A DNA stretch of 23,926 bases, taken from positions 1-23,926 of the IMG/VR virus record IMGVR_UViG_3300019752_000021; one strand, 5' to 3'. Source of the DNA: a virus. Positions within the stretch are counted from its first letter, which is position 1. Every line of letters starts with the position of its first letter. Shown one piece after another: positions 227-23,159 of this stretch. The position numbers and the translations under genes are program-made. The notes beneath the pieces were generated by a model. It did no database searches and was not told where the DNA came from. It was given only the letters and a program-made list of their open reading frames with translations.

Positions 227-729
227 GGTGCCACCTCCTCTGGTTCAGGCAGCAGATCCAGTTCCGCTCGCCGGTTACACACATACCCAGACGGGTATGG
301 CGACATATTGACCCCCGCCTGAATGGATACAATTTCCAGGGCCAGCCGGACGGAATCCCCCAAAATCAGATAAATCACATCGTTTTTCTTGATTCTGAAC
401 CCGTCATCACCCTCAATAGCTTCCGGTTCAATCAAGTACTGGCGTTCGTCGCCACTCTGGTATGTGGCGTCACCACGATCCACCAGCGATGACGCTGAAA
501 ACTGTTCAGCAGGTAAGGCAAAGCCATTCCCCACATGCTCATATTCAATATCATGCTCATCTTCAGCGCTGAGCACGCCCAACCCACCAATTGTGGGCAT
601 TCCGCCAGATACGGTATCCGATGTACGCAAAACAGAGCGCCGGAACACCTGGCACTCCAGCGTATTGGGGTGGTTTATGACGACGTTCCGAATCATCCGG
701 CTAACGCCACCAGCAATATTGTTCAGCAT
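223..729 (-). CDS. Putative virion protein (168 aa), function unknown
   Basis: A 168-aa soluble protein. The start ATG at 729 shares one base with the stop of the SWIM gene (TAATG) and its own stop overlaps the next ATG, so it sits tightly in the structural operon. The N-terminal half is Gly-rich around residues 43-52 (GGMPTIGGLG) and acidic after that. The C-terminal half has a beta-strand pattern (NDVIYLILGD, RLALEIVSI) followed by YVCNRRAELD. This resembles small conserved phage neck/head-tail proteins placed near tail-terminator genes, but that is from memory of similar operons, not from a diagnostic motif. No signal peptide or membrane segment is visible. Role in the particle is inferred from context only. 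Confidence 0.75.
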   Translation of the reverse strand: MLNNIAGGVSRMIRNVVINHPNTLECQVFRRSVLRTSDTVSGGMPTIGGLGVLSAEDEHDIEYEHVGNGFALPAEQFSASSLVDRGDATYQSGDERQYLIEPEAIEGDDGFRIKKNDVIYLILGDSVRLALEIVSIQAGVNMSPYPSGYVCNRRAELDLLPEPEEVAP

Positions 730-1853
730 TACACAAACCCCTGCCTGGCCAGCTCTGCCATAAAGTCTTCATGAGAGATGGCACCGGCCTGAAGTTTCCG
801 GGCATAGTCCGCAAGCTCGCCCCGGCGCGTTGCCTTAGCCGGACTTCCATTTGCAACAGATTTAACACGGGGGGCAGACTGTACAGCCTGCTGCAAGGCT
901 CGTAATTCAGCCCTGCGAGCACGTTCTCGTCTATTTCGGGCCTCCCTATCATCCGTCGTGTTAATTTGCCGTGTGCGCGCCGGACGGCCTTGTATCGCAT
1001 TGGCCTCTTTCTGACTGAGACGCGAGTTTGCCCTGTTATTATCCGATGCCTGCAAGCGCTTCAGGTGCATAATCAGGAATTGCTCAAACACTGCTGATGA
1101 CTGCAGTTCAGACATAGCCCTGATCACGTGCTTACATGCCACTCCACGCAGGTGAGGGTTACGGATTTTGGGATAACCCAGCTCCTGCCGTCCGGCGGCA
1201 AACCCGCCAATCGTGGCCAGATAACGAAAAAAGTACCGGTGGCGCTCACAGTCACACTCAAACGCCATTTTTTGTTTTCTCAACCAGTTCGCCACTCGCT
1301 TTATGGCCTTATCATCCCCTGCCTTCACGCTGGCCAGCCGAATACCGGCCTCATTCATAGCATTCATTTTCACGTTGATGATGTGAGAGGTTTTACCGCT
1401 GCTGCCGCTGGCACTGGTTTTAATCCGTAGCTCGTCTCTTCTGATGGACACCGGAATAGCAATCCGAATTTCACGCCGGGCCTTCTCAAGATCATTGCTG
1501 CACCCATTGTTATCGTCTGGGTTTTTGTAGTTCAGAGGCGTTGCCGCCGATACATCAATGATTTGCTGCGGCGTAATTCCCTCGCCTTTGAAGTTTGCGC
1601 GAGCCACTCGCATATTTTGGCGAAACAGTGCCATGTCATGGCGGGTGATGGGCCGCACCTTGCCACCCATCGTGGTGAACAGCGTCCGAGAGGCATCCCA
1701 CTCGCCTTGAACATCGCGCTTGGTCAGAATGACATTTTGGTTCTTGGGCTTGTTTTCAGCTTCCTCTCTCTGCCTTGCGTCTTCGTCCAGACGCCACCGC
1801 AGTTCCTTTACGTGCCCACCAACCCGGAACAGCTCATCATCATCGTCACTCAT
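729..1853 (-). CDS. SWIM-type zinc-finger protein of the virion operon
   Basis: A 374-aa, very basic protein. Residues 200-242 contain Cys-Asp-Cys, a 37-residue spacer, then Cys-Lys-His, matching the SWIM pattern CxCx(n)CxH. SWIM fingers bind zinc and take part in DNA or protein binding. The spacer is longer than in most SWIM domains. Upstream of it is the segment GSSGKTSHIINVK (150-162); it is Gly/Ser-rich with a lysine but is not a full Walker A. The C-terminal third (about 260-345) is Arg/Ala-rich and probably helical or nucleic-acid binding. The N-terminus is acidic (MSDDDDE) and then Arg/Glu-rich. The ATG at 1853 overlaps the gpX-like gene's stop as ATGA. A DNA-contacting head or head-tail role would fit the neighbours, but no function is established by the sequence. 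Confidence 0.75.
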   Translation of the reverse strand: MSDDDDELFRVGGHVKELRWRLDEDARQREEAENKPKNQNVILTKRDVQGEWDASRTLFTTMGGKVRPITRHDMALFRQNMRVARANFKGEGITPQQIIDVSAATPLNYKNPDDNNGCSNDLEKARREIRIAIPVSIRRDELRIKTSASGSSGKTSHIINVKMNAMNEAGIRLASVKAGDDKAIKRVANWLRKQKMAFECDCERHRYFFRYLATIGGFAAGRQELGYPKIRNPHLRGVACKHVIRAMSELQSSAVFEQFLIMHLKRLQASDNNRANSRLSQKEANAIQGRPARTRQINTTDDREARNRRERARRAELRALQQAVQSAPRVKSVANGSPAKATRRGELADYARKLQAGAISHEDFMAELARQGFV

Positions 1854-2188
1854 ATATCAATCCACGTTGGCTGGTGGTTGCTCCGGTACTCCGATAGTGA
1901 CTCAAACCCCGCAAGCCGCTTGATTCGATACAGCACGGACTCATTCGGCAAAGCCAGTCGCTGCTGTTCCAGCGGCTGCTCCAGCGTATCCAAGCCTGCC
2001 GCTGCCATTACCGCCAGAAACTCATCCCTACGACCGTACACGCGGTACGAAACCAAACTCAGATCAAACATTTCATCTGGCTTGGTCTCGTACCAGATCA
2101 CACCTTGGTGCCACTCTCGCGCCGCCTTGGCGAAGTCACGTATTTGCCGATAGTAGCTACCGGCAGCCTGGGGGTTTTTTTCAATCAT
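1850..2188 (-). CDS. gpX/LysM-like phage tail (baseplate) protein
   Basis: A 112-aa protein. Residues about 33-92 follow the layout of phage tail protein X and LysM-like baseplate proteins. They show a start like IWYETKPDEMFDLS, then YRVYGRRDEFLAVMAAAGLD (the position where gpX has its Tyr-Gly and NPGL region), and a closing 'LALP' before a helical tail. In P2, gpX is a small baseplate protein, and T4 gp53 has a related LysM fold. This protein is longer than P2 gpX because of an N-terminal helix (AGSYYRQIRDFAKAAREW). The start ATG at 2188 has only a weak AGG about nine bases upstream; the previous stop is 12 bases away. The assignment is by pattern, not by a unique motif. Confidence 0.6.
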   Translation of the reverse strand: MIEKNPQAAGSYYRQIRDFAKAAREWHQGVIWYETKPDEMFDLSLVSYRVYGRRDEFLAVMAAAGLDTLEQPLEQQRLALPNESVLYRIKRLAGFESLSEYRSNHQPTWIDI

Positions 2189-2200
2189 TGTCAGCGCCTG

Positions 2201-2701
2201 CTAAATCGTCACGACATGACCGGCCATCAGATTTGATAGATCATCAGCCATATCCAGGGTTTGAGAAATATCCGCAACATTGGAAACGTATAGGCACGTA
2301 GCTAACACAGCGACATGGGAGTTCGTAAGATCAGAAAGCCGATATTTCCAACCATTGGCATCAAGGCTGTCGCGCTCGATGACACTGATAGGGTTGGCGG
2401 TGGCCACTACTGGATCAATCTTGAGGGCCACACCACCTTTTTGTGTTTTTGAATTTTGGCGATCATAAAAAGCCTCAACGCCATTCATGATCAGTTGATC
2501 ACTGAAAAAATAGTCGTGTGCATGGCCTTTTTTATTGGTGATCAGTGTGTAGCTATCGTTTTTCCGAGAGGGTTCAAATGCCGTCAACCGACTAATCATC
2601 AGGATGTCTCTGTCGGGCGCATACAAGCCATACAGCGTTACAGGCTCTCCCATATACCCAGAGATGGCGGCTCGGATAAATACCGCTGCAGGTTTATTCA
2701 T
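2201..2701 (-). CDS. Unknown protein of the structural operon (166 aa)
   Basis: A 166-aa protein whose ATG (2701) overlaps the stop of the upstream gene as ATGA. No signal peptide; one mildly hydrophobic stretch near residues 128-143 (HVAVLATCLYVSNVAD) is probably a core strand or helix, not a membrane span. Mixed beta/alpha sequence with YGLYAPDRDILMISRL near the N-terminus. I do not recognise a family. Its place between a putative neck/tail-terminator protein and a gpX-like tail protein suggests a small tail-completion or baseplate part. That is inference from gene order. Confidence 0.7.
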   Translation of the reverse strand: MNKPAAVFIRAAISGYMGEPVTLYGLYAPDRDILMISRLTAFEPSRKNDSYTLITNKKGHAHDYFFSDQLIMNGVEAFYDRQNSKTQKGGVALKIDPVVATANPISVIERDSLDANGWKYRLSDLTNSHVAVLATCLYVSNVADISQTLDMADDLSNLMAGHVVTI

Positions 2702-3363
2702 TTCGATACTCTCCCGGCAATACTGGCGTTATTAACAAGGGGAACATCATCATCAGCAACAAGTGGAATAGTCGCTTGTAGAGTCAGGTCTATGGCCAGT
2801 ATTGTGAGGTTCTTTGAGTCAGTCGGTATGGAGCTGCCGTAGGCTTCAGGGGATTCGATATTCACCGGCCATTGCACCGCCTTGCCACAGATGGAGTGCG
2901 GTGCATAAAACCCTCGGTACACTTCAAGAAACGTGTGAAATTGCCCGGCAATGGATCGTGCAGTCGCACTATCGTGCGCAGCAATACAAAGCTGCGCGCG
3001 AAAATCAGCCTTCAGTGTTTTCATTCGCACGGCTTTGTCATCAGTACCTGGCACACCAACAACATGCTCCGGCACTTGACGGCCACGTGATCGATCAGTG
3101 GGAGTAAAGTCCTTCGCGATGGCCACCAGCACCACAGGCAACTTTGGTGGCTTGGTTGCAGCCTGATCAGTATCGTTTTTGTGCCATGAATCCACCATTG
3201 CCTGAGCTTCATCGATCATTCGGTCAGGCGCATAAGCGATAGACTTGTCCAGTCCGCGCTTCAGGTATTCTGCCATGGCTGTAGTCGTTGGAGTCATATC
3301 CTCATACCAACGCCCCAGGAATAAGCCAAACCCCGTCTTCAATGGGTCACTGATAATATCCAT
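2698..3363 (-). CDS. Putative tail-terminator or neck-type virion protein (221 aa)
   Basis: A 221-aa soluble protein. The N-terminus (FGLFLGRWYEDMTPTTTAMAEYL) is amphipathic helix. The middle (about 72-85, KLPVVLVAIAKDFTP) and the end (about 182-200, SKNLTILAIDLTLQATIPL) are alternating hydrophobic strands. A final 'LTILAIDLTLQATIPL'-type strand before a short polar tail is reminiscent of tail-terminator/neck proteins, which form rings with beta sheets; no signature residue proves it. The start ATG (3363) lies two bases after the previous TAG and lacks a clear Shine-Dalgarno, so it probably depends on coupling. Its stop overlaps the next ATG. Virion role is likely from context, the specific role is uncertain. 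Confidence 0.6.
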   Translation of the reverse strand: MDIISDPLKTGFGLFLGRWYEDMTPTTTAMAEYLKRGLDKSIAYAPDRMIDEAQAMVDSWHKNDTDQAATKPPKLPVVLVAIAKDFTPTDRSRGRQVPEHVVGVPGTDDKAVRMKTLKADFRAQLCIAAHDSATARSIAGQFHTFLEVYRGFYAPHSICGKAVQWPVNIESPEAYGSSIPTDSKNLTILAIDLTLQATIPLVADDDVPLVNNASIAGRVSK

Positions 3364-3365
3364 TA

Positions 3366-4190
3366 CTAGTTACAACCCAATCGAGCATAAATACGACGTG
3401 TTTCCAAATCTTGTTTAGCCGGTTTTTCATCGGGGCTTTCAAGCGTCTGCAAAGGCGCAGAACCAAAACTCTGAATATCAGACAGGATGTCATTGTACGT
3501 ACTTGTGAGCACCGGACGCTGGTGGCCGGTGATGCCATCCAATGTGACCGTATCCGACTGTCCACCAGCCACCAGCAGTGACAAATATTGTTGGTTTTCT
3601 GAGCCGAGACGCTCGATGGTCTCCATCGCCGCGTTTTCTCTGATGCGTGCGCAATCAAGTAGGTATATCAGACCGTCCTGCTGTTCCGTATTCACCGCCT
3701 CATAACGCTGCCCAGGCTCCATACTCTGCACAGAATCCAGAGACAAACCGTAACCTCGGTTTTGGTTGTAATTTGGCTCCTTGACGTAATCAAATCCATA
3801 GAAATGCGGCTTTCTCTCATCAATCGCAGACGAAAAGCCGCCCACGCGCGACACATGCATTGAGCGAGCGATCTTACCGGGGTTTGTTGAAAGAAACTCA
3901 GCTTGATGACGAATAGTGCCATCGTCATCGGCTTCCAGCAGCGTTGTCACCAGAGCCGGTTCCAGGGAGTTGACCTGCCCTTTCAAGATGCCACCCTCAG
4001 CAGGATTCCAGCCGAACGCCAAACGTGGCCAATGACCGTAATAGCCAAGCACATCACGAGATTTAACCATTTCTTGCATACGCGGGCTATTAATCAATGC
4101 AGCAATCTGCTGACAGTTAAAACTGCGATCTTTGCCAGTGTAGTGACGGCCACGATTGGCCAAGTTGTAGGTGATGATGTCGGTTTGCAT
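3366..4190 (-). CDS. Putative head-assembly protein (scaffold or maturation-protease-like), unproven
   Basis: A 274-aa protein using the ATG at 4190. A GTG at 4199 is in frame, but the GGAG Shine-Dalgarno lies directly against it and is correctly spaced (8 bases) for 4190. The core (about 45-125) holds YYGHWPRLAFGWNPAEGG, then a DDGTIRHQAEFL segment with one histidine, then RVGGFSSAIDE. The C-terminal 60 residues are polar, Glu/Gln/Pro-containing and probably disordered (SPDEKPAKQDLETRRIYARL). A folded, His/Ser-containing domain followed by a disordered tail is the plan of prohead proteases and scaffolds, which is why I suggest that. I cannot identify a catalytic triad. It begins a fresh block of structural genes right after a candidate promoter (4214-4241). 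Confidence 0.55.
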   Translation of the reverse strand: MQTDIITYNLANRGRHYTGKDRSFNCQQIAALINSPRMQEMVKSRDVLGYYGHWPRLAFGWNPAEGGILKGQVNSLEPALVTTLLEADDDGTIRHQAEFLSTNPGKIARSMHVSRVGGFSSAIDERKPHFYGFDYVKEPNYNQNRGYGLSLDSVQSMEPGQRYEAVNTEQQDGLIYLLDCARIRENAAMETIERLGSENQQYLSLLVAGGQSDTVTLDGITGHQRPVLTSTYNDILSDIQSFGSAPLQTLESPDEKPAKQDLETRRIYARLGCN

Positions 4191-4213
4191 AAACGCCACT
4201 CCAAAGAACAGCG

Positions 4214-4241
4214 TTTATAATCTCACCTGAGAAGGGGGCAA
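4214..4241 (-). promoter_or_regulatory. Candidate sigma70-type promoter before the head/tail gene block
   Basis: On the minus strand TTGCCC (4241-4236) and TATAAA (4219-4214) are separated by 16 bases. The -10 matches the consensus at five of six positions and the -35 at four of six. Transcription would start near 4207, about 17 bases before the ATG at 4190. It lies in a 70-base gap between the accessory cassette and the next structural gene, where a restart of transcription makes sense. A phage-specific promoter system could make this match meaningless. Confidence 0.4.
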
Positions 4242-4260
4242 GCTGGTGGGTGTTTCCGGG

Positions 4261-4599: not shown

Positions 4600-4609
4600 T
4601 GTTAAGTCC

Positions 4610-5514: not shown

Positions 5515-5522
5515 AAGGTCAA

Positions 5523-5657: not shown

Positions 5658-5685
5658 AAAAACTCCTTTTATTGTCAATAAGCGG

Positions 5686-6419: not shown

Positions 6420-8405
6420 TCACCCTCCTACACCACCGGTAGCAATATGCGCGATGCGCCGGTCACGCACATCTTGTCCAGCATCCTGCGGAACCTGAAC
6501 AGTGACCTTTACGTCGCCACGCCCACCAGCAGCAGAGCTGGTGGGTTTAATCGGCGGTGCATCCTTTATCACAACTGGATGCTGTGCTTTTGGAAGCTTG
6601 ATTTCTGGCTGTGTAACCGACAACGCAACTGCGGGAGCATCACGGTAGCCGGATGTAACTCCCAGGCCAGCAGACCCCTGCACTGATGCTGCTACAGAGG
6701 GAGCAGGCAAGGAATTTACAGCCGGTACAGAAGGAGAAATTGGTACCCCATCTTCTTCAAACCACGATGACGCGTTTTTGTAAAATCCGGTCACCGTTTT
6801 TCCGATAGCATTCTCTTCAGTCAGGTACGTGCCCACTTTACTTGTAGTTTCTGATACCACGCTTACAGCTTTATCAACGATCATTGACCCAGATTCTGCA
6901 ATGGTTTCAACGCCCGGCAGCGAGTCAAACAGATTCGCACCCATTTCCATCAAGTCTGTTATGGACTTCAGAGCACCATCAAAATCAAAATTGCTTGTAA
7001 CGGAATCCCACATTGATTCTATGGATTGAGTTGTTGAATCCCAAGCCGAAGAAATCTTGCCTGGAATGTCCGCAGAGCGTAGGTCATTGACCCATTCACC
7101 CAGTTTTTCGCCGATGATTTTGCCGCCCTGATCCCCCAGGAAACCACCGACGATAGCCCCCACCGCTGCGCCAATTGGCCCAGCGATCGCTCCTGCAGCA
7201 GCACCAGCAAACATCCCGCCAATACCACCAGCCACACCACCGGCATTGCCCCCATGTTCGATATCTTTCTCTCTCCGACCCAGGCCATCATCACTCTCAA
7301 TGTCATGAGCATTCCAAGCCGCTATTCCGCTTGCAATCAGAGCACCAACAACAGGTATGCGACGCAGCACACGACCAATCCCGCCGCGCCGCCCTCCATC
7401 CCTATCCCTATCCCTATCCCTATCCCTATCCCTATCCCTCCTCGACCCCGTCCCTGGCAAGTCAAGATCCGGCAGGGATGGGATAAGAGACGATATACCC
7501 GCCACCACAGCCGCTACCAACCCCAGTATGGATGTCATCAATGAAGAACCCTTGCCACCCACTGGTTTTCGCTCAATATCCTTCAGGATTCGGTTTTGAG
7601 CCTTTGAGTACCCAGTCTCAGACTTGCGAAACAACGACAATTCGCTCCAGATTTTTTGATACCAACGCTTCTGAAGTTTCTCCTGATCATCAATTTGAAA
7701 CACAGACGATACGGACGACAACCCAGAAGAAAGAGGGCTTAACACCTCTCCTACCGCCTTGATAGACGGATCAACTTCCCCAACAGCTTGCGAACTGGCC
7801 GCCACGTTGCCAGCGGCACCGCTTATTGACTCCAAACTATCCAGAAGTCGGCTTTTGGTGTTTTTGTCAGAAGCCCGCACATCTCCACCCCCAAAGCGCC
7901 CATCCATTCTACGGGTGCTTGATTCCGGCTCGGCTACAGGCAATAAGACAGGGCTTGGTTGCGCAACAGCTTCAGGCAGGTTCGCGCTCTTGGTTTCGCG
8001 GGTGGCAACAGCAGCATCCAGCACAGTCGATGCGGGACGCGCAGTAGAAGGCGAAGAGGAAGGTATCACCTGTATCGGCAGTGCCATATCGCTGGTGGCA
8101 TACTGGTGATACGCAACCACTTCTGCTGCAGGGGTGACGACACCAGAAAGAAGGCCCGCACCCTTGGTCTCGCGGGTGGCAATAGCAGCATCCGGCACAA
8201 TGGTTTTTTCCCGGCGGCTCCGAACAACTCCTGAACCACCAGCGTCATGTTCAGTTAATGCTGGTGGCCAGGCAGGGCCATTGGACAGAATGGAACGAAT
8301 GGCACCTATATCTGACCTTATGTCATTCAGAACATCAATTTGCTCTTTTAGGTCAATTCGATCACCAATCAGAAACCCTTGGCTGTCATGATTTAGTACA
8401 GGCAT
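6420..8405 (-). CDS. Large Gly-zipper phage protein, possible tail tape measure
   Basis: A 661-aa protein beginning at ATG 8405, with GAGGTGA about five bases upstream and a TAATG overlap with the preceding gene. N-terminal 40 residues look coiled (LKEQIDVLNDIRSDIGAIRS). Residues about 55-170 are Ala/Ser/Pro-rich and contain an imperfect duplication (DAAIATRETK and DAAVATRETK). A hydrophobic stretch near 290-312 (MTSILGLVAAVVAGISSLIP) is followed by seven Arg-Asp dipeptides, then a hydrophobic helix (VVGALIASGIAAW) and a long glycine zipper (about 383-430, AGGVAGGIGGMFAGAAAGAI and onward). The C-terminus is Pro/Ser-rich and ends TGGVGG. Tape-measure proteins combine coiled coil with membrane-active segments, and this is the longest virion-like gene after the tube-like gene. 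At about 0.15 nm per residue it would fit a tail near 100 nm. It could instead be an injected or membrane-puncturing protein. Confidence 0.6.
   Translation of the reverse strand: MPVLNHDSQGFLIGDRIDLKEQIDVLNDIRSDIGAIRSILSNGPAWPPALTEHDAGGSGVVRSRREKTIVPDAAIATRETKGAGLLSGVVTPAAEVVAYHQYATSDMALPIQVIPSSSPSTARPASTVLDAAVATRETKSANLPEAVAQPSPVLLPVAEPESSTRRMDGRFGGGDVRASDKNTKSRLLDSLESISGAAGNVAASSQAVGEVDPSIKAVGEVLSPLSSGLSSVSSVFQIDDQEKLQKRWYQKIWSELSLFRKSETGYSKAQNRILKDIERKPVGGKGSSLMTSILGLVAAVVAGISSLIPSLPDLDLPGTGSRRDRDRDRDRDRDRDGGRRGGIGRVLRRIPVVGALIASGIAAWNAHDIESDDGLGRREKDIEHGGNAGGVAGGIGGMFAGAAAGAIAGPIGAAVGAIVGGFLGDQGGKIIGEKLGEWVNDLRSADIPGKISSAWDSTTQSIESMWDSVTSNFDFDGALKSITDLMEMGANLFDSLPGVETIAESGSMIVDKAVSVVSETTSKVGTYLTEENAIGKTVTGFYKNASSWFEEDGVPISPSVPAVNSLPAPSVAASVQGSAGLGVTSGYRDAPAVALSVTQPEIKLPKAQHPVVIKDAPPIKPTSSAAGGRGDVKVTVQVPQDAGQDVRDRRIAHIATGGVGG
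6522..6545. repeat. Inverted pair of Chi-like octamers in the large Gly-zipper gene
   Basis: CCCACCAGC (6522-6530) and GCTGGTGGG (6537-6545) form a perfect nine-base inverted repeat with a six-base loop. Each arm contains one GCTGGTGG, in opposite orientation. It encodes part of a Thr-Ser-Ser-Ala-Ala-Gly-Gly segment, so coding can explain it in part. Confidence 0.8.
7398..7439. repeat. Seven tandem copies of the hexamer ATCCCT
   Basis: Seven exact head-to-tail copies of ATCCCT (42 bases). On the coding minus strand each unit gives one Arg-Asp pair, so the large Gly-zipper protein carries an uninterrupted (Arg-Asp)7 charged linker. Perfect identity of all copies implies recent slippage expansion, because synonymous changes have not accumulated. 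Confidence 0.95.
7984..8199. repeat. Imperfect 42-base direct repeat in the large Gly-zipper gene
   Basis: Copies at 7984-8025 and 8158-8199 match at 37 of 42 positions and are 174 bases apart, in frame. They encode the two DAA(I/V)ATRETK(G/S)A motifs in the low-complexity N-terminal region of the protein. This is a partial internal duplication or a footprint of recombination between relatives. Confidence 0.85.
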
Positions 8406-9184
8406 TAAATCACCTCAGTCCAAACAAGATCCAATCGTTTAAAATCATGGCCATCGCGGTCAAGGCTGGTTTCAATTGAGACCGGCCGGAAGTGCGCTTT
8501 CTCCACGAGCGCCTTTATTTTCTCCTGCGAGTCAGGATCTGGATTGATGTAGCTGTGGGTGATTTTAATTTCGACAGAGTACTCTGCCGGTAATCCAACA
8601 GTGCCGTCAGAATGAGCAACAAGGCTTGAAAGCCCTTTAAACCAGTCATGGATTGTTCCCTGCTTGTCATCCCAAGTACTGATTCTGAGTTCTACCGGCT
8701 CGCTGCCAGTCACAACATCCATTTGCAAACCACCGACCTGTTTACGCTCTCCCGATATTGTGAATGGCGAATAACCGATAGAACGAACAAACATATTGAA
8801 AAGTTTGGAATCCGATATCCCAGGGTCTTGGCTCACTTCAATCAGGAAAAGATTCTCTTTGGCCAACGGCTGGGCCGAAAACTCCTGGTAGTATTTGATG
8901 GCCTTTTCTGGCGTCATTCCACCGAACAATTTGGACTTGGTTTTCATAAACTGCTCACGAATAAGCTGACTACCCAGCTTATTGTCGAGCTTACTGGCCA
9001 GATCCATGACAGCGCCATCAACGTCACCCGTTTCTACTTGTCGCTTTATCTTGCGCAACTCTGGTGGCAGATATGCAAATGCAGCGTCATTCATAATGCG
9101 CTCGCCAAGCCCACCAGCAGCACCAGCGCTCAAATTGGACTGCTGCTGCGCCAACCGTGCTTTCACTTGATCAAACAGCGCCAT
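8405..9184 (-). CDS. Putative tail-tube-fold virion protein (259 aa)
   Basis: A 259-aa protein. The ATG at 9184, which opens MALFDQVKARLAQQQ, is preferred over the frame's earlier start at 9244, which would run 74 bases into the portal gene; from 9184 the overlap is 14 bases. Residues 1-95 are helical (AGAAGGLGERIMNDAAF, LPPELRKIKRQVETG). From about residue 110 it turns into a beta-rich domain: ENLFLIEVSQD, MFVRSIGYSPFTISGE, GGLQMDVVTGSEPVELRIST, then WDDKQGTIHDWFKGLSSLV and a final YSVEIKITHSY. This order, with a Gly-containing loop and a 'tG.epvelr.st.DD..gti..wf' stretch, resembles gp19-type tail-tube and tube-initiator proteins. The helical N-terminal extension is unusual for a simple tube, so a tube-initiator or completion protein is an alternative. 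Confidence 0.55.
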   Translation of the reverse strand: MALFDQVKARLAQQQSNLSAGAAGGLGERIMNDAAFAYLPPELRKIKRQVETGDVDGAVMDLASKLDNKLGSQLIREQFMKTKSKLFGGMTPEKAIKYYQEFSAQPLAKENLFLIEVSQDPGISDSKLFNMFVRSIGYSPFTISGERKQVGGLQMDVVTGSEPVELRISTWDDKQGTIHDWFKGLSSLVAHSDGTVGLPAEYSVEIKITHSYINPDPDSQEKIKALVEKAHFRPVSIETSLDRDGHDFKRLDLVWTEVI

Positions 9185-10703
9185 GACCAGCCTCATCATT
9201 GCTACCGGTGGTTGCTTCTGCGTACACCTTTGCATCATCTTCATCCAACAGCATTTCTTTTGTTAAAAACTGGGTGATGGCTTGCTCACCCCATCCCAGT
9301 TCCCGTAGCTGCGACAGCCCACCCAGCACCATCAGAGCGGTATTCATCTTATCCATCTGTGTTTTCTGGCGTTCAGCTTCCAGCGCTGATATCGAGCCAT
9401 AGAAGCTGATCACCCAAGGACGTTCACCAGGCTTGAAAACCAGTCCGTATTTTTTCAGCGTATGGATGTCTACGATATGATTCAGGAAATGACTCAGAGA
9501 TGATCTGATGATTCGGGCACGCTCGGCTGCCTGGGCACTCATACGGAAAAACCCACCATCTCCCAGACCTCCTGACAACTGATCAGCAAAGCCCACCATG
9601 GATAAATCGGTTCCCAGAGAACCCGCGAGCATCCGGGCATGTAACATGATGTCTTCTGTGGATATGGTGGTGTTACGGCCACCCTCGCTCATTTTGGATA
9701 TGCTCTGTATCTGCTTCTCATGAAACACAGGCAGGATGTGTTTGACGCGTTCCAGAAACGGCTCCCCGGTTCTCACAGCATGCTCGGCAATTTCCTTTGA
9801 CTTCTTGAGCATGGTCACAACATTTTCCTGAAATTTCTTTTGCTGCTCCTTCGTCATTCCATCCATTTTCAGAGTCACAATTTCTTCGTCAATGGAATCC
9901 ATTTGACGCTGGCCTACAAGCCCGATCAGGGCCGTATTAAGCTTGTTATATGCATCTTCCGCGTTATACAGGAGGGAGCCACCCGCCATGGCTGGCAGTA
10001 ACGGTAGTTTTTTGGGGTCATCTTCGGTAATAGCCATCCGAATGGCTTTTTGAACAACACCATGCTGGGGAACCCACTGTGTGCGCGGCATTTTAAACCG
10101 GGCCATCTGGTCAATAGACAGTCGTTCTTGAGCTTTTTTACCGGTAGCAACGGTAAAGCCGACAGTGCGAGTGCCACGCTGAAATGGGAGCACAAGAGTC
10201 GGCCTGAACATTTCGTCAGTATTGATATCAACGATGCCAACCTTGTCCTCAGAGTACAGACGGGCATATGCATCCCCGAAAGCCGACCCGGTATACGACA
10301 CTTCAAACGCAATGCGATTGAACAGGTCGCCCAGATCCTTCGCCACTTCATCTGCAATCCTGGCTTTTTGAGCATCTTTGGATGCATGTGCTGCACGCTC
10401 AATGAAAACCAGCGCCCCTGTGGTTTCATGGCCTCCAAGTGCTCCTGTCACCTGTAACTGAAGAGCGGTAGAAACAATGGGGTTTGCTTCCATTTCAGCC
10501 CACTTAGCATAAATATTGGCGCGGGCACGTGCCTGACGGTTGCCTGCAGAGAGCAATGACGAGACGGTAGCCGCCCCCTCAAACGCATAGGCATCAGAAT
10601 CAATTAAATCGTGATCATCCTGGGAAGCGGTTTCCTGAATTTCATCAGCAACCTGAATTTCCTTACGAAAGGGCCAGACGCCTTTCTTCTTTGTTTTTGC
10701 CAT
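9171..10703 (-). CDS. Portal protein
   Basis: A 510-aa protein of typical portal length. It starts with a Lys-rich tip (MAKTKKKG) and an acidic stretch, then a helical region RARANIYAKWAEMEANPIVSTALQ (in part; about 56-82) that matches the portal opening in which two helices precede the wing. The wing/stem section contains DINTDEMFRP (about 176), PRTQWVPQHG (about 227), then long helices around 260-325 with Glu/Lys-rich coiled character (KEQQKKFQENVVTMLKKSKE). The C-terminal crown region is helical (SALEAERQKTQMDKMNTALM). Portals form the dodecameric ring through which DNA is packaged. The ATG at 10703 has only a weak ribosome site, and an inverted repeat sits just upstream (10707-10730). The next gene overlaps its end by 14 bases. 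No single catalytic motif exists for portals; identification is by length, architecture and neighbours. Confidence 0.7.
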   Translation of the reverse strand: MAKTKKKGVWPFRKEIQVADEIQETASQDDHDLIDSDAYAFEGAATVSSLLSAGNRQARARANIYAKWAEMEANPIVSTALQLQVTGALGGHETTGALVFIERAAHASKDAQKARIADEVAKDLGDLFNRIAFEVSYTGSAFGDAYARLYSEDKVGIVDINTDEMFRPTLVLPFQRGTRTVGFTVATGKKAQERLSIDQMARFKMPRTQWVPQHGVVQKAIRMAITEDDPKKLPLLPAMAGGSLLYNAEDAYNKLNTALIGLVGQRQMDSIDEEIVTLKMDGMTKEQQKKFQENVVTMLKKSKEIAEHAVRTGEPFLERVKHILPVFHEKQIQSISKMSEGGRNTTISTEDIMLHARMLAGSLGTDLSMVGFADQLSGGLGDGGFFRMSAQAAERARIIRSSLSHFLNHIVDIHTLKKYGLVFKPGERPWVISFYGSISALEAERQKTQMDKMNTALMVLGGLSQLRELGWGEQAITQFLTKEMLLDEDDAKVYAEATTGSNDEAGHGAV

Positions 10704-10730: not shown

Positions 10731-10757
10731 GATGGTAGAGGGTATTGCTGGTGGGGC

Positions 10758-10789
10758 ACTGCTGGTGTTTCCGACGATCCACCAGCAGT
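10758..10789. repeat. Ten-base perfect inverted repeat built on the Chi-like octamer
   Basis: ACTGCTGGTG (10758-10767) and CACCAGCAGT (10780-10789) are perfectly complementary, with a 12-base loop. It lies in the 90-base gap between the 141-aa gene and the portal gene. A third octamer copy sits beside it (10747-10754). No U-tract follows on the minus-strand transcript, so it is not a classical terminator. Confidence 0.85.
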
Positions 10790-10793
10790 ATGG

Positions 10794-11219
10794 TTACATG
10801 AGTTCAGATTGGGCTATCGCGGTTTCCATATCGTCATCCCAAAGCGTCCACACGTCCCCTGACCCATCCAAATCAAACTGATTAGAGCCAACGAAGAAGG
10901 TACTGAGATACAGATCCCGGAACATGTCTGCTTTGACGATGGATTCCTCCGGCGTTTCGCCGGAATACGTTTCGCGCACACCAACATCATCATCGCTACC
11001 CAAGTAATACTCATCCTCTCCCAGCAACCGCTTTATTTCCCACCAGTACGGGCCATAGTCCCTGTAGCGAGCCGGTTCTTTCGCCAACCTCCGTTTGATG
11101 ACATTCAAAGCGTGCCCTTTGAAATCCGACGTATCTTTGCTGGCCTGTAGATTTGCGGTCATTTCCTCAACAGCATTTTTCACGGTTTCAGGATCAAATA
11201 AAAATTCAGTGTATGCCAT
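10794..11219 (-). CDS. Unknown acidic 141-aa protein upstream of the portal
   Basis: A 141-aa acidic protein starting at ATG 11219, 12 bases after the stop of the methyltransferase/helicase gene, with a modest AAGAGA ribosome site. Features: an N-terminal helix (DPETVKNAVEEMTANLQASK), a basic middle (NVIKRRLAKEPARYRDYG), and an acidic C-terminal third (FDLDGSGDVWTLWDDDMET). The DLDGSGD part resembles an EF-hand loop (DxDxSG), but no flanking helix pair is evident, so calcium binding is only a thought. The family is unknown. It could be a small packaged protein or chaperone associated with the portal or the large neighbour. Confidence 0.7.
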   Translation of the reverse strand: MAYTEFLFDPETVKNAVEEMTANLQASKDTSDFKGHALNVIKRRLAKEPARYRDYGPYWWEIKRLLGEDEYYLGSDDDVGVRETYSGETPEESIVKADMFRDLYLSTFFVGSNQFDLDGSGDVWTLWDDDMETAIAQSELM

Positions 11220-14200: not shown

Positions 14201-17200
14201 ATATGCCGCCCATCATGTCATTGACACGCTCATGCCCATAGGCCAAAGCCAGCATCGAGTAGATTTCCAACGGGCTGTTGGTCAACGGCGTTGCCGTCAA
14301 CGGAATCACACCGTCACCAGCAGCACTCAATCCTCGGATGTACCAGCATTTAGCTTGAGCATCCAGCCCGCGCTTGGCAGGCTCGCTGATCGATAAATAT
14401 TTTGCTCCAGAAAAATCAACAGTCGAGGATGAGTTCTTAAAACCATGAGCCTCATCAATCACAATCGAATCAACGCCCATATCTTCAAGGTATGGTGCAG
14501 CAGAGCCTTTGCCTGACAGAATACTGAGAATGGTCTTGGCTTTGCCTTTCTTGCGCTCATCCTCTTTTTTGGATTCAGAATCAGCAAAAGAAGCATCAAC
14601 GGTGCGCATATAACGCTCAAAGCCCTCAATTGAGTCATCACGCAGAGGGATGCGCTCAAACGCCTCGAACGTCATGAATATTTTGGAGTGCTGATTCTCA
14701 AGAATGATGTTCAAGTCCTCATCATAAAGGCTCGAATCCACATCAAATTTTCCACTGCCCTTTTCTCTCAGGCCAACAAACAAACACCCCTTATTACTGG
14801 CATAAGCCGGTGAATCCCCCTTTTCAGGGTCACCTCGAACTGCCTCCTTGTGCCAATTGGAAAGAACCGAATTGGGTACGACAAAGATGGTTTTCTTTTT
14901 GACGCCCATAGACTGCACATATTGCACAGCCATTAACGCACTGAACGTCTTGCCCAGGCCGGTACCGAACGCATTGATGCCCGCAAAATCACGCCCAATT
15001 TTTCGCGTCCAGGACGACTGATACCCATGGGGTTTGAAATCCGGGTGCAGACCTGGAACCTGAAGTGGCGTTTCATCATCAGCCTGACGAAAACGCAGTT
15101 TTGCAGGGTCTGACATTTGTTTTTCGAGGCGGGACAGTACTTTGGGGCTGGACTTTGACCAGCTATTAAACTGCTCATTGGCCCGCTTAAGCATGTCACG
15201 CAATTGTTTAATGGCCGCTTTGTCATCAATAGACAGCTCTGCTCCACCCAAGCTGACCGACCCAGTCTTAAGATGGTAGCCAAATCGTTTAAGCAGCTTT
15301 TCATAGTCAGTGAGCTTGGAACCCCGAATATCGAAGATGATTTCCTGATCGCCTGTGCGCTCATTTGTGCCAACGACGGCCCGACTATCCACGTAACGAC
15401 GAAGAAACTCTGCTTTTTCTTCCATGCCCACGTAGGGGCTGAACAGGTTGAACTGGATACGCTCCAGATTCACCTTATCAACACGCTCTGCGGCCAAAGT
15501 TTTCTGACGCAACAGCTTGGACTTAACCCGGTCATCAGAAGATGAGGAAACGGCTGTATCTATAGCTGTCAAGAACGCCTGGTAGTTGCCGACATAGTAA
15601 TCATCAGCGGGCGTACATTGGGTGCCATCATCTGAAATGCACCATTCATCAGACTCCACCGGGTCAAAGGCACCCCCCATGACTGAGCGGGCTTGATCAA
15701 AAGACAGCCAGTGTGATTTGTTCTGGTACTGAATCCCATCAACACCCATCTCAATTGACTCAATAACAAGTGCTGACTCTGCAACATCACCCCGCCACAA
15801 GGCCGAATATCCCTGCTTTTTCCCCTTGTAATGGTTGCGAATCTCACCAAGCACCTGACGGCCAAACCCTTTCAGCTTAAGCCGCTTGGCCTCTGTGTGA
15901 TGGGCCAGCATGGCTTTTGAAAGCTCGGGATATTCTTGCAAAAAGTTGGTTCCAGAGCTTCGGCCTACTTCATCCAATATCTGTCGTACAGCCGCCCCTA
16001 TCAGCACAGGACGCCATGAACGCTTTTTATCAGGTGAACTCAAAAAGTCCAGAGCGCTGTTGATGCTGGCCAGCCAGCCAGGAATGAACAGCGACTGGCT
16101 GGTGGCGTGCATGTAGTCCACCAGCTTAACGGCATCTTTCAAGGTGACGTCAGATTCAAATGCCGAATAGGCATCCTTACAGCGCCCCAGCAACTGCATC
16201 ATGTCCAAATCACTGGAGGAGGAATCGAGAGTGATCCACTCGCCGTTACGATACTCCAGTGTTTGGCCACCATGAGCCAGAGTATCGCCATCCCGGTACT
16301 CGATGGGCATGGTTTCTGCTGATTCAAGCAACCCCCAATCAATCCGGGAGTCAGGCAGCTTGCGCAACAGGTTTGCAATTTCCGGGACAGAAGCGTTGTT
16401 TTCAACCCGATCAACATCGCGGTATTTTTCAGGGTCTTTGGCCTTGAAATCTCCCAGGACGTGCGGCGAACCTTCTGGCGTTTTGAAGTAATCCCCATCA
16501 ATGTAGCCCGACCACAACACCTTGGCAGCAGATAGCAATGCAGGGTCTTGCTCCAGCAGTTCGGTGATTCTTTCTGCGCTATCGGTGCCAAATTTACGGA
16601 AAAATATCACATCCGTAATTGTGTCAGCCGCTGCCGCCCCAAACACCTTATTGGGCAGCCGATAAGCACCCAAAAACTCCGCTTTAATGCTTGCTCGCTC
16701 ACGCAGTTTACGATCAGAGCCGCCTCTTGCCGTTGTACAACGCGGCGGCACGATGAACGCGGCCAGGCCGCCCGGTTTCAGCTTATCCAGTGAACGCAAG
16801 ATAAAATAGGATTCCAGCGTTTCCTTCTGGTACTTCTTGTCGAGTAGCTGATTACCACCCCGATCAGCCGTAGTACCAAATGGCACGTTGGTTACGACCG
16901 CATCGTATTGTTCATCTGGCGTCGCCGCCGCTACAGCTTCAAATGGGCTGATCGTGGTGGTATAGGTGTCCGAGTTATTCAGTAATGCGTTGATTGACCC
17001 TGACGTACCATCAAGTTCAACAGCATCAACGGCTGCATTGCCTGGGGCTGTGGCCCCAAAGACACCGGTACCGGCGGACGGATCAAGCACTTTACCACCA
17101 GCAAACCCCATGTCTTTCAATGCATCCCACACACCCGCTGCAACAGGTGTTGGAGTGTAATACTCGTAAGCACTGCCCTTTTTACCATCATCACCAATCA

Positions 17201-17567
17201 AAGCACCGCCATTGCCGGAGTATGCAGCCAGGGTTTCTCGATATTCTTCTGTCAAATCAGACTGTGACAATTCACCCGCATTGAAGCGTGTAACAATATC
17301 GACTGCGGCTTTATTGGCCTTCTGTCGCTTGCCGCGAGACTTGATGTTTTGGTGGCCATATACACCGCTGTCACGATTAGCTGATGGTGTATCAGACCCA
17401 TAAACCCCAGTAAGCAATACACGGATCTGATTGGCTCTTGAGATAAATTTCAAACGCTCCAAAGCCGTTTTCATTTCCACAAGCAGGGATTGTTTTATCT
17501 CTGCAAGTTCGCGCACGAGTTTCAGTCGTTCAATCGCATTGAGGCCATTTGCCTTATCTAAGATCAT
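11232..17567 (-). CDS. DarB-like polyvalent protein: N6-adenine methyltransferase fused to SNF2 helicase
   Basis: A 2111-aa protein; ATG at 17567 with AAGGAG eight bases upstream, overlapping the previous stop. Residues about 135-330 are a gamma-type adenine methyltransferase: YYTPTPVAAGVWDAL, then motif I LDPSAGTG (161-168, SAM binding) and catalytic motif IV as NVPF (227-230), a variant of NPPF. Residues about 840-1515 are a superfamily 2 helicase: PHGYQ (846-850), Walker A GTGLGKT (868-874), VVPNSVLSNW (motif Ia), DEAH (1038-1041), TATP (1091-1094), and QRNGRGVRQG (1492-1501, motif VI). The last 600 residues are unassigned. P1 DarB (about 2250 aa) has the same plan, is packaged in the head, and protects injected DNA against type I restriction. 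The context here, beside DarA-like genes in a structural operon, fits that role. Restriction targets and packaging are inferred. Confidence 0.9.
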   Translation of the reverse strand: MILDKANGLNAIERLKLVRELAEIKQSLLVEMKTALERLKFISRANQIRVLLTGVYGSDTPSANRDSGVYGHQNIKSRGKRQKANKAAVDIVTRFNAGELSQSDLTEEYRETLAAYSGNGGALIGDDGKKGSAYEYYTPTPVAAGVWDALKDMGFAGGKVLDPSAGTGVFGATAPGNAAVDAVELDGTSGSINALLNNSDTYTTTISPFEAVAAATPDEQYDAVVTNVPFGTTADRGGNQLLDKKYQKETLESYFILRSLDKLKPGGLAAFIVPPRCTTARGGSDRKLRERASIKAEFLGAYRLPNKVFGAAAADTITDVIFFRKFGTDSAERITELLEQDPALLSAAKVLWSGYIDGDYFKTPEGSPHVLGDFKAKDPEKYRDVDRVENNASVPEIANLLRKLPDSRIDWGLLESAETMPIEYRDGDTLAHGGQTLEYRNGEWITLDSSSSDLDMMQLLGRCKDAYSAFESDVTLKDAVKLVDYMHATSQSLFIPGWLASINSALDFLSSPDKKRSWRPVLIGAAVRQILDEVGRSSGTNFLQEYPELSKAMLAHHTEAKRLKLKGFGRQVLGEIRNHYKGKKQGYSALWRGDVAESALVIESIEMGVDGIQYQNKSHWLSFDQARSVMGGAFDPVESDEWCISDDGTQCTPADDYYVGNYQAFLTAIDTAVSSSSDDRVKSKLLRQKTLAAERVDKVNLERIQFNLFSPYVGMEEKAEFLRRYVDSRAVVGTNERTGDQEIIFDIRGSKLTDYEKLLKRFGYHLKTGSVSLGGAELSIDDKAAIKQLRDMLKRANEQFNSWSKSSPKVLSRLEKQMSDPAKLRFRQADDETPLQVPGLHPDFKPHGYQSSWTRKIGRDFAGINAFGTGLGKTFSALMAVQYVQSMGVKKKTIFVVPNSVLSNWHKEAVRGDPEKGDSPAYASNKGCLFVGLREKGSGKFDVDSSLYDEDLNIILENQHSKIFMTFEAFERIPLRDDSIEGFERYMRTVDASFADSESKKEDERKKGKAKTILSILSGKGSAAPYLEDMGVDSIVIDEAHGFKNSSSTVDFSGAKYLSISEPAKRGLDAQAKCWYIRGLSAAGDGVIPLTATPLTNSPLEIYSMLALAYGHERVNDMMGGISGADDFMFAVCDIEDEDQETIDGKYRSMRVFKGLNNVDMLRSMLHQVATVKSSEDVGNQIHVPDAQETATSVELSESTNERLQLYKDAYRYAADTMREKDDAGGSEHAYNEVSEYFGEPMELVAHPFNLINKMTLLVVDPDLDRRMTRYHVANEDMATKLAEEWNKKKPSEERDRPGPNATEDEATSVKARRIDGEVVGRLYKIPVKAWQNGSSVCIDSTDWKTQDKLEAMAKKLKIELDVSVPPKLAAFLDNFQREAASPRGVDAEGKRVSRAKQIVFCDILSMHNKIKRLLVSRAGLSSSRIVIATGQRNSSPEAIQAVQDGFNGTGNDGKFDVVIGNQKIEVGINLQKGTQALHHLTIGWTPDSLTQRNGRGVRQGNATSNVTVYHYDASGTFDSAKRTLVNSKSNWIDSLMDQSGKDDRIEISGGMSREKMEALIDVMGDRDGESKLQESQAAQEAEDRAKSKRDKQIINLDTIQKQRQFLSDYEQPVSWVGKYLGELMGVMGARASLRERLANPKVGANAAARYESKLAELQPRLDGLNATINAGATIFKTDYQGNNPVQHEPEEVISEFLRGAKRGESRPSDLIKAISAGHFAYSTWRIDVNEDSELYSDWSSEIDMSEAMKEQSVINYEKQAGGDRSLPEEAARALAAGQGALIKGLPVFDGCFFVSDNASDLVVYHQGKAHGRWGGSLRFEERKVWMMAEGEIIYPGTARYSELLVEAAKLEDQAEEEGEPFNGYSDAIPDVLQHRVVEKMAVYSIGKWRLPSPYFPVVIPDHHGRDSEHLAKIIKQQSGVIKRFNSYPAQFVVSSSVEVEPIGALTAASALLDYYKANGIRAKVADFGPDEYRVVRDLVHPLVSADSLRAKLETVEATSVAVDAAVSEYFEDSVPWFDVGGDIENVMTWDMKYVINEILSVTSKSAESDDDYIKVVGETKVWKEQIKSYARRYGGGFKWLRNEVAWEIKRGAFKLLIEEYSRAGEDLSIR

Positions 17568-17579: not shown

Positions 17580-21475
<3,896 letters not shown>

Positions 21476-21479
<4 letters not shown>

Positions 21480-21961
21480 GACTCACCGGCCTTGAGCGCT
21501 TTCGTGGCTTCCTGAATCTCGGCAATGGACGCCTTCAGGTCGTCCCGCTTCTCCACCAGCTTAGCTTCGCGGCTTTTCCGGCTGACTGCCATGCCCTTGG
21601 GGACGGCCACCTTGGCTTTTGCTAGGCGCTTTTGGAATGCGGTGCGACCAGCATTCAGCTTTGCTACGATTTCGCCCACAGCGGCTTTGTGGTCATCTTG
21701 AGATCGTACCGGAAGCTCACGACCATTCACTTTTACCTTGAAAATATCCCCTGGCCGCTTGATCAGCATGGTGACAGTCTGCGAATCCGCAAAAGTGAAG
21801 TGTATTGTTCGGTAGCTGATCCCTGATGTTCGCCGGATTTTGTCATCGACCTCGATCTCGATGGTCTCGGCTCCCGCGCTGGCGAACAGGCGCTGAATTT
21901 TCTTCAGTGCCTTGTCTTTATTTGATAAATCATCGAACGAGAAAAGTAGCTTTTGGCTCAT
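21476..21961 (-). CDS. DarA-N-like anti-restriction protein (161 aa)
   Basis: A 161-aa protein starting [13 protein letters not shown] at ATG 21961; a GGGGGA ribosome site five bases upstream decides this start over an earlier in-frame ATG at 22006. Residues about 15-110 form one domain: helix with [14 protein letters not shown], then [39 protein letters not shown] and a final helix [13 protein letters not shown]. This matches the N-terminal domain of P1 DarA-type (defence against restriction A) proteins. The C-terminal 50 residues are a charged coiled coil ([19 protein letters not shown]). A related copy of the domain lies inside the next protein. It is translationally coupled to that gene. 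Likely acts in the capsid or at DNA entry with the two large proteins; this is by analogy to P1. Confidence 0.75.
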
Positions 21962-21975
21962 GTCATCCCCCAGTT

Positions 21976-21998
21976 TTGCTAACACATATTGTGAGCAA
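21976..21998. promoter_or_regulatory. Imperfect palindrome before the anti-restriction module
   Basis: TTGCT (21976-21980) and AGCAA (21994-21998), plus inner CACA (21983-21986) and TGTG (21990-21993), make a 23-base imperfect palindrome with a bulge of two A. It lies in the gap between the tail genes and the first anti-restriction gene, six to seven bases upstream of its ribosome site. It could be an operator or an mRNA hairpin. No good promoter hexamers accompany it. Confidence 0.3.
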
Positions 21999-22044
21999 TC
22001 CAACAAGGGGCGACCGGCCCAGGTTTCCGACCGGAGTCACTGGC

Positions 22045-22506
22045 TTAATCGGCGGGTTTTTCTCCTTCCTGGGAGAAGTTGCTGGCAAACATGGCTGCCA
22101 CGGCATTGGACAAGGCAGTGACCGCATTGGACTGGGTGGGAGACGCCTTCAGGATTGCGGCATGAATCTTTGAAGATTCGACCTTGTGTTTGTGTTTTCC
22201 TGTTGTTGTATCCCAGCTCCCGGCCCAGGCCGTCACTTCCTGATCAATGCCCATTCCAATCGCCAACAGAAATCCATGGCCTTTTCCATGGCCGGTTGCG
22301 GATATATCGGCAAATTCCGTGGTGATTGCCGTGGTCATGGTGGTGGGAGTTGATGGTATCGCTGCTACCCATCCGGCATCCAGAGCCGCTGACAACCGGC
22401 TGGCCATTGCCGAGTTCTCATCAATTTGGGTTTTGTATCCGCCTTCAACAGTGAATTTAACCGGGAACAGTTCGGATCTAATATCGTCCACACCAGGGCT
22501 TGGCAT
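22045..22506 (-). CDS. Unknown 153-aa protein beside the spike gene
   Basis: A 153-aa protein whose ATG (22506) overlaps the spike gene's stop as TGATG, so it is coupled to it. It contains a Thr-rich strand region (about 54-66, TPTTMTTAITTEF), a Gly/His segment (SATGHGKGHGFLLAIGMG) and a His/Lys cluster GKHKHKVE (about 102-109), followed by an Ala-rich helix (SNAVTALSNAVAAMF). No family recognised. Adjacent to hub and spike genes, it is probably a baseplate component or assembly factor. The His clusters might bind metal but that is speculation. Confidence 0.7.
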   Translation of the reverse strand: MPSPGVDDIRSELFPVKFTVEGGYKTQIDENSAMASRLSAALDAGWVAAIPSTPTTMTTAITTEFADISATGHGKGHGFLLAIGMGIDQEVTAWAGSWDTTTGKHKHKVESSKIHAAILKASPTQSNAVTALSNAVAAMFASNFSQEGEKPAD

Positions 22507-23159
22507 CAGGTACCTGCCGTCACGGTGGCACTACCTACAGGGTGGGCCAAGCCGGTAAACGCACACGCATGAGTCTGGCACACCACCCCACCCGCCTTGC
22601 CGCCATTCAGCACCACCGTATTCCCATCTATCTTGGCAGTACCGGCTGCCTTAATGGATGCATCACCACCAGCATCCACAGATGCATTACCACCAGCGGC
22701 TGCGGACACATTGCCATCGGCATTAACAGAGGCATCACCGGTCGTGTTAACCGTCACCCCATCAGCATTAATGACAACCGAATGCTGCTTGTCGGTTGTG
22801 ATGAGCTGCAAGGTGTTATCGGCCAACAGTTCGATATTGGCATGCTGGAATCGCCGCCACTCTGTTGAGGCGCTGGTGGTTGGGTTTCTGGCACCGGTGA
22901 TGATCGGGTACCGGGAATCACCGCCAATAAACTCCAGCCAAACCGAATCACCGGCCTCAATGCGTATTTCCGTGGCCCTGACATCGTGAATGCTGCGATC
23001 ACCAATGGGGTATTCAATTTCCGCCAGTGGCAGCACATCACCACCATCCGTTAACCCTGGTATCTCAACCCGGCATTGCCGGTGTTCCGGAAGGTATTCT
23101 TTTACAATACCGGGGTAACGCCCGGCCATTACCGTCATTCGATTGCTGTTATTGCTCAT
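22506..23159 (-). CDS. Baseplate spike protein, gpV/gp5-like
   Basis: A 217-aa protein. Residues about 10-92 form the OB-fold typical of gpV/gp5/VgrG spikes (RYPGIVKEYLPEHRQCRVEI near 14-33, SVWLEFIGGD, then YPIITGARNP). Residues about 131-187 are seven eight-residue repeats rich in Gly, Asp, Ala and Val (such as GDASVNAD, GNASVDAG, GDASIKAA), which should build the triple-stranded beta-helix needle, as in the T4 gp5 octapeptide repeats. The end (194-206) is C-Q-T-H-A-C-A-F-T-G-L-A-H, a Cys/His cluster that probably binds a metal at the tip, in place of a separate PAAR cap. The trimer pierces the outer membrane on contraction. The ATG at 23159 has GGGGA seven bases upstream and overlaps the hub gene's stop (ATGA). 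Confidence 0.85.
   Translation of the reverse strand: MSNNSNRMTVMAGRYPGIVKEYLPEHRQCRVEIPGLTDGGDVLPLAEIEYPIGDRSIHDVRATEIRIEAGDSVWLEFIGGDSRYPIITGARNPTTSASTEWRRFQHANIELLADNTLQLITTDKQHSVVINADGVTVNTTGDASVNADGNVSAAAGGNASVDAGGDASIKAAGTAKIDGNTVVLNGGKAGGVVCQTHACAFTGLAHPVGSATVTAGT

What the first reader, a model, noticed from the sequence alone, without database searches (positions are those of the whole stretch)
480..22879. Roughly 50-fold enrichment of the Chi octamer GCTGGTGG across the window
At least 37 exact copies occur in 23.9 kb, about one per 650 bases, against about 0.7 expected. This is several times denser than Chi in the E. coli chromosome (around one per 4-5 kb). Copies use many different codon frames, occur on both strands (23 along transcription, 14 against) and hit three intergenic gaps, so protein sequence alone does not explain them. 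One-base variants such as GCTGGTGT or GCTGGTGC on the plus strand are rare by comparison. Possible roles: protecting phage ends from RecBCD-type nucleases and turning the host enzyme into a recombination helper, a packaging or uptake tag, or a binding site for a phage DNA-organising protein.
Basis: partly seen in the sequence, partly recalled or inferred. Interest (0 to 1): 0.85.

Follow-up and report, generated by a model that had tools for sequence, protein, structure and literature searches.

The report
Phage fragment loaded with recombination-enzyme signals
A piece of an uncultured P1-like bacteriophage carries 37 copies of the eight-letter "Chi" signal that tells the bacterial RecBCD enzyme to stop destroying DNA and start recombining it; this is a known phage strategy, but the surrounding family shows that the signal is swapped to match the host's own enzyme and is not loaded where the phage carries its own recombination genes.

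Summary
In detail: 37 exact GCTGGTGG in 23.9 kb (14 +, 23 -), against 0.87 in dinucleotide shuffles and 4.5 (maximum 11 of 1000) when proteins and codon usage are held fixed. It is the most over-represented octamer of all. "50-fold" is too high; about 7.5-fold over the protein-preserving null is fair. The window is a fragment of a P1-like phage (DarA/DdrB, Hdf, Ulx, portal). Complete P1-like phages and phage-plasmids of enterobacteria carry 50-103 Chi each (one has 49 in 24 kb), so the density is within the known range. Relatives from Pseudomonas carry instead 35-107 copies (records over 50 kb) of GCTGGCGC, the biochemically defined Pseudomonas Chi. This motif swap argues for RecBCD recognition and against a packaging or structural tag. 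Relatives with phage recombination genes (RecT or YqaJ) are not Chi-loaded; one lacks GCTGGCGC entirely (0 against 19 expected). The window sits in a clade otherwise not loaded with Chi, so it gained its load independently of the P1 clade. Chi enrichment in recombinase-less phages, P1-like included, is published (Bobay 2013). Verdict: real, ordinary in kind, with an interesting family-wide host-matching pattern.

The parts
480..487 (-). Chi GCTGGTGG
707..714 (-). Chi
1870..1877 (+). Chi
3123..3130 (-). Chi
3518..3525 (+). Chi
3562..3569 (-). Chi
3569..3576 (-). Chi (overlaps the previous by one base)
4242..4249 (+). Chi, intergenic
6523..6530 (-). Chi
6537..6544 (+). Chi
7225..7232 (-). Chi
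8091..8098 (+). Chi
8236..8243 (-). Chi
8260..8267 (+). Chi
9111..9118 (-). Chi
10747..10754 (+). Chi, intergenic
10779..10786 (-). Chi, intergenic
12029..12036 (-). Chi
12280..12287 (-). Chi
13053..13060 (+). Chi
13641..13648 (+). Chi
13790..13797 (-). Chi
13832..13839 (-). Chi
16098..16105 (+). Chi
16118..16125 (-). Chi
17095..17102 (-). Chi
18190..18197 (+). Chi
18543..18550 (+). Chi
19130..19137 (-). Chi
19336..19343 (-). Chi
19826..19833 (-). Chi
20801..20808 (-). Chi
20901..20908 (+). Chi
21553..21560 (-). Chi
22666..22673 (-). Chi
22690..22697 (-). Chi
22872..22879 (+). Chi
9171..10703 (-). portal protein of the P1 type (context: identifies the phage)
   Evidence: PHROG phrog_1497 E 1e-150; P1 portal/Prt 28%
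10794..11219 (-). Ulx-like anti-restriction protein
   Evidence: phrog_1629
11232..17567 (-). 2111-aa methyltransferase-helicase protein
   Evidence: Pfam Eco57I, N6_Mtase, SNF2-rel_dom, ResIII
17580..21479 (-). fused DarA_N / DdrB-ParB head protein, used for the family tree
   Evidence: Pfam DarA_N, ddrB-ParB, InPase, LPD29; tblastn to P1 DarA/DdrB
21476..22006 (-). Hdf-like anti-restriction protein
   Evidence: phrog_1620 E 3e-38

Best explanation
The octamers are working Chi sites for the RecBCD enzyme of the phage's host. The window is part of a P1-like phage. Likely course: linear, terminally redundant DNA enters the cell; RecBCD loads on its ends (and later on broken or replicating ends), meets an active Chi within a kilobase or two from either side, stops degrading the 3' strand and loads RecA; the ends recombine with the redundant copy or with sister genomes, so that the genome is saved, circularised and joined into concatemers for packaging. 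Selection keeps Chi dense because the phage has no recombinase or RecBCD inhibitor of its own. Shown here: exactness and excess of the octamer beyond protein constraint, both strands, P1-like identity, host-matched motif swap in relatives, exclusion with RecT/YqaJ genes in relatives. Inferred: the host recognises GCTGGTGG, the missing part of this genome lacks a recombinase, and the physiological step served.
For: Excess over codon-preserving shuffles, 34 against 4.5, first of all octamers. GCTGGTGG is also the single most over-represented octamer in P1 (36 against 4.7 in 55 kb), Cronobacter phage JK004 (93 against 17.7), a Serratia phage-plasmid (65 against 10.3) and IMG/VR G021 (61 against 8.1); whole-record counts are 50-103, reversed-motif controls 0-4, in seven enterobacterial P1-like records. 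In Pseudomonas members the top octamer is GCTGGCGC: P. putida plasmid NZ_AP015032 101 against 27 (107 in the whole record, reversed control 7), P. fluorescens CP048608 49 against 13.6 (53, control 0). GCTGGCGC is the Chi of P. syringae RecBCD, which does not recognise GCTGGTGG (PMC5959072). Eight records with RecT or YqaJ are not loaded with either Chi; the 12 loaded records tested for RecT, ERF, YqaJ, Rad52 and Gam have none (Fisher p 0.002 on the first 17 records, not corrected for relatedness), and further loaded ones lack YqaJ. Precedent: PMC3784561; P1 has 50 Chi, and circularisation of P1 DNA without Cre is attributed to RecA/RecBCD (PMC10028697).
Against: The host is unknown, and the nearest named relatives come from Pseudomonas, Chromatiaceae and others rather than enterobacteria. 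Only 24 kb is held, so absence of a recombinase cannot be tested. No experiment. The motif/recombinase association rests on a few clades, so independent events are few. One relative (G013) has YqaJ and a weak RecT yet is enriched in another motif containing CTGGC, and one YqaJ-bearing relative (G007) has mildly raised Chi (16 in 97 kb, reversed control 2).
Confidence: 0.85

Rival explanations
1. The octamer is a tag for the phage's own machinery (headful packaging, capsid DNA organisation, or the ParB-like DdrB protein), and its identity with Chi is incidental.
For: Density is far above the host level; several injected head proteins including a ParB-like domain are encoded in the window.
Against: Homologous phages with the same proteins use GCTGGCGC when the host is Pseudomonas, which is precisely that host's Chi; relatives with 70-75% identity in the ParB-like domain are not loaded with either motif.
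Confidence: 0.05
2. Chi is selected mainly as protection from CRISPR spacer acquisition, since RecBCD products between a DNA end and the first Chi feed Cas1-Cas2.
For: The link between Chi and spacer acquisition in E. coli is established knowledge (PMC10011333, listed, was not read). Dense Chi in both orientations would shorten the exposed stretch.
Against: Does not by itself explain why relatives with recombination genes do without Chi and why one lacks GCTGGCGC completely.
Confidence: 0.07
3. By-product of protein sequence and codon usage (Ala-Gly-Gly, Leu-Val, Thr-Ser codons), or of repeats.
For: In an open scan for Chi pairs many hits are single-strand runs inside one gene. Codon shuffles raise the expectation from 0.9 to 4.5.
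Against: 34 against at most 11 in 1000 codon shuffles; many phases, both strands, intergenic copies, unrelated flanks.
Confidence: 0.01

Closest known systems
Chi enrichment in recombinase-less lambdoid, T5-like and P1-like phages (Bobay, Touchon and Rocha 2013, PMC3784561)
   Same: Same octamer, same over-representation beyond composition, same phage group (T5-like and P1-like named as the strongest), same exclusion with recombinases and inhibitors.
   Different: Density here 1.55/kb against 0.2/kb in their recombinase-less lambdoids; this lineage is far from the enterobacterial P1 clade; the paper concerns E. coli and Salmonella phages.
Enterobacteria phage P1 and relatives (D6, SJ46, Cronobacter JK004, Serratia/Enterobacter/Shigella phage-plasmids)
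   Same: 50-103 Chi per genome, both strands, top octamer; homologous DarA, DdrB, Hdf, Ulx, portal and tail genes.
   Different: Only 41-45% identity in the DdrB-ParB domain, against 70-75% with relatives not loaded with Chi; DarA_N and DdrB domains are fused in the window.
Pseudomonas P1-like phage-plasmids (NZ_AP015032, CP048608)
   Same: About 61-62% identity in the DdrB-ParB domain; loaded with their host's Chi.
   Different: Motif is GCTGGCGC, not GCTGGTGG.
Pseudomonas-Chi-rich lambdoids JBD68 and F10 (Gabija preprint, PMC12407980)
   Same: Pseudomonas phages carrying 18-20 host Chi, interpreted as possible use of RecBCD.
   Different: Unrelated phage type; reported as counts.

Membership tests
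Chi-loaded, RecBCD-using phages (sense of Bobay 2013) | Exact Chi octamer over-represented beyond composition | tested here: met
   37 copies; 16-fold over order-2 Markov, 7.5-fold over codon-preserving shuffles, rank 1; one-base variants rare
Chi-loaded, RecBCD-using phages (sense of Bobay 2013) | No phage recombinase and no RecBCD inhibitor | tested here: inconclusive
   No RecT, ERF, YqaJ, Rad52 or Gam match in the 24 kb, but most of the genome is missing; Sak4, gp2.5, Abc2 and other families were not searched
Chi-loaded, RecBCD-using phages (sense of Bobay 2013) | Host RecBCD recognises the motif | not testable with these tools
   Host unknown; no near DNA match in E. coli genomes or plasmids
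P1-like phages | DarA/DdrB/Hdf/Ulx anti-restriction proteins and P1-type portal | tested here: met
   Pfam DarA_N, ddrB-ParB; PHROG portal, Hdf-like, Ulx-like; tblastn to P1
P1-like phages | Plasmid prophage replication and partition genes, headful pac packaging | not testable with these tools
   Outside the 23.9-kb contig
Enterobacterial P1 clade (Punavirus and near kin) | Falls inside the clade of P1, D6, SJ46, JK004 | tested here: not met
   DdrB-ParB tree: window in another clade, support 100/99, with ten rows not scored as Chi-loaded; P1 clade separate at 100/100

The most novel reading that the evidence does not exclude
Across the whole P1-like family the dominant octamer of the phage genome is the Chi of its host's RecBCD, and loading switches on or off as the lineage loses or gains its own recombination genes. 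The window is an independent switch to the GCTGGTGG type in a clade otherwise not loaded. If so, P1-like genomes can be read to infer the host's RecBCD type and unknown Chi motifs (for example CTGGCAAG/GCTGGCAA in G013).
Probability: 0.5. Interest if true: 0.62.

Novelty: new member of a known kind. Interest (0 to 1): 0.45.

Why it matters
It extends a rule known from coliphages to a wide family with different hosts, and adds a natural control that coliphages cannot give: homologous phages carrying two different Chi motifs, each matching the host enzyme. That makes the function of Chi in phages directly testable, gives a sequence-only clue to the host of uncultured P1-like phages, and offers a way to find unknown Chi motifs in bacteria whose RecBCD has not been studied.

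Tried and rejected
Single-protein scans of viral contigs with the 2111-aa protein and the 374-aa tail protein found no relatives. An open scan for close Chi pairs in direct orientation brought mostly one-strand runs inside single genes and is not a fair survey; the inverted-pair scan was more useful. Host identification by near DNA match in plasmids and E. coli genomes failed. A strand preference was considered and rejected: 23:14, p 0.19, and codon shuffles alone predict 2.6 to 1 in favour of the gene strand. The synonymous-site test could hardly be run: only 2 of 34 coding sites lie where any relative keeps the residues identical; Chi sites sit at somewhat less conserved residues than gene-matched positions (0.36 against 0.44, p 0.03). 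The idea that the density is unique was rejected: JK004 has a 24-kb stretch with 49 Chi, and L348 (a P1-like record close to Citrobacter phage-plasmids) and L323 (similar to an Erwinia phage) reach 1.5-1.6/kb over 13-14 kb.
Full report
What was claimed and what is there. The window holds 37 exact GCTGGTGG, 14 on the + and 23 on the - strand. Dinucleotide shuffles give 0.87 (maximum 6). A stricter null, which keeps each protein and its codon usage and shuffles synonymous codons, gives 4.5 +/- 1.9 (maximum 11 of 1000) for the 34 copies in genes. The octamer ranks first of all octamers under that null; the next ones overlap it. One-base variants occur 0-5 times per strand and the flanks are unrelated. 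So the excess belongs to the exact octamer and is not a repeat family. The 50-fold figure should read about 7.5-fold over the fair null.

What the window is. It is an IMG/VR record of 23,926 bases, all of which is the window. Its proteins include a fused DarA_N/DdrB-ParB protein, a 2111-aa methyltransferase-helicase, a portal protein, Hdf-like and Ulx-like anti-restriction proteins and tail genes. These are head and anti-restriction genes of P1-like phages. No near DNA match exists among phages (for part of the window), plasmids or E. coli genomes.

The family shows the same behaviour. Whole-record counts of GCTGGTGG (reversed motif in brackets): P1 50 (1), D6 53 (4), Cronobacter JK004 103 (4), SJ46 54 (3), Serratia plasmid 74 (4), Enterobacter plasmid 71 (2), Shigella plasmid 71 (0), IMG/VR G021 67 (1). 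Under codon shuffles Chi is the top octamer in P1, JK004, the Serratia plasmid and G021. The densest 24-kb stretch of JK004 holds 49. So the window's 37 is high but within the range of its kin.

The motif follows the host. In P1-like records from Pseudomonas, GCTGGTGG is at most twofold over expectation and GCTGGCGC is loaded: P. putida NZ_AP015032 107 (reversed 7), P. fluorescens CP048608 53 (0), and nine IMG/VR records of the same clade plus the outlying G048 with 19-80. It is the top octamer of the two named plasmids under codon shuffles. GCTGGCGC is the Chi of P. syringae RecBCD, which does not recognise the E. coli Chi (PMC5959072). I found no paper describing this for P1-like phages (only open-licence papers are searched); a preprint notes Pseudomonas-Chi-rich lambdoids (PMC12407980).

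The window's Chi load is an independent gain. In a tree of the DdrB-ParB domain (48 rows, 418 columns) the window lies with ten rows scored as neither type (support 100/99), among them Pseudomonas sp. UMAB-08, and is separated from the enterobacterial P1 clade (100/100); starred branches force at least two changes for the GCTGGTGG label. The labels were assigned from the counts, and some rows are short contigs.

Recombination genes and Chi loading exclude each other. RecT or YqaJ matches occur in G002, G053, G055, G013, G060, G062, G007 and Xanthomonas phage Rb1, none loaded with either Chi (G007 is mildly raised, 16 in 97 kb); the loaded records tested have none, and ERF, Rad52 and Gam are absent throughout the 18 records tested. 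G002, G053 and G055 are close relatives of the window. In G053 GCTGGCGC is absent where 19 are expected, as in the related L181, L184 and L186. This repeats in a wider family what Bobay et al. reported for lambdoids: recombinase-less phages load Chi, those that block RecBCD avoid it (PMC3784561). The counts are not corrected for relatedness.

Mechanism. From established knowledge of RecBCD, Chi acts when the enzyme comes from its 3' side; with copies about every 650 bases in both orientations, an enzyme entering from either end would usually meet an active Chi within one or two kilobases. For P1, circularisation without Cre is attributed to RecA/RecBCD, and 50 Chi are noted (PMC10028697). I therefore take the copies to be working Chi sites that turn the host enzyme from destroyer to helper. 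That the host is of the GCTGGTGG type and that the missing part of the genome lacks a recombinase are inferences.

Verdict. Observation real; interpretation right in its first form; kind of system already known; this is a new, independently evolved member of it. The family-wide host matching is the part that deserves follow-up.

Noticed in passing
G013 (IMGVR_UViG_640427134_000001; loci L263-L268), also L020, L023, L025: P1-like relative whose top octamers under codon shuffle are CTGGCAAG (28 against 3.7) and GCTGGCAA (33 against 7.5), a candidate unknown Chi. It carries YqaJ and a weak RecT match.
   Followed up: partly
G053 (loci L269-L272), L181, L184, L186: The Pseudomonas Chi GCTGGCGC is completely absent (0 against 19 expected in G053) although the genome is 68% GC: apparent avoidance in close relatives of the window that carry YqaJ.
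   Followed up: partly
window 14960, 17066, 18356, 18698, 21287, 23538; also G053, G042: Palindrome CGGTACCG is over-represented in the family (42 against 2.8 by base composition in G053, 38 against 3.1 in the P. putida plasmid; 6 in the window). Role unknown.
   Followed up: partly
window 17782-17936: Hexamer repeat TCTGGT (19 overlapping matches of TCTGGTTCTGG and near it) inside the DdrB-like gene; the stretch matches Pfam Trypan_PARP, an acidic repeat.
   Followed up: no
window 7398-7438: Short tandem repeat ATCCCT inside the 661-aa gene (tape-measure-like in PHROG).
   Followed up: no
L147 (Chromatium weissei NZ_NRRR01000007.1): Locus next to a relative of the window protein has octamers AAGGATTG/ACTCAATA about 30 times, probably a repeat array.
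   Followed up: no
L323 (IMGVR_UViG_3300031151_000224): Phage contig similar in part to Erwinia phage Midgardsormr38 with 20 Chi in 13 kb on both strands.
   Followed up: partly
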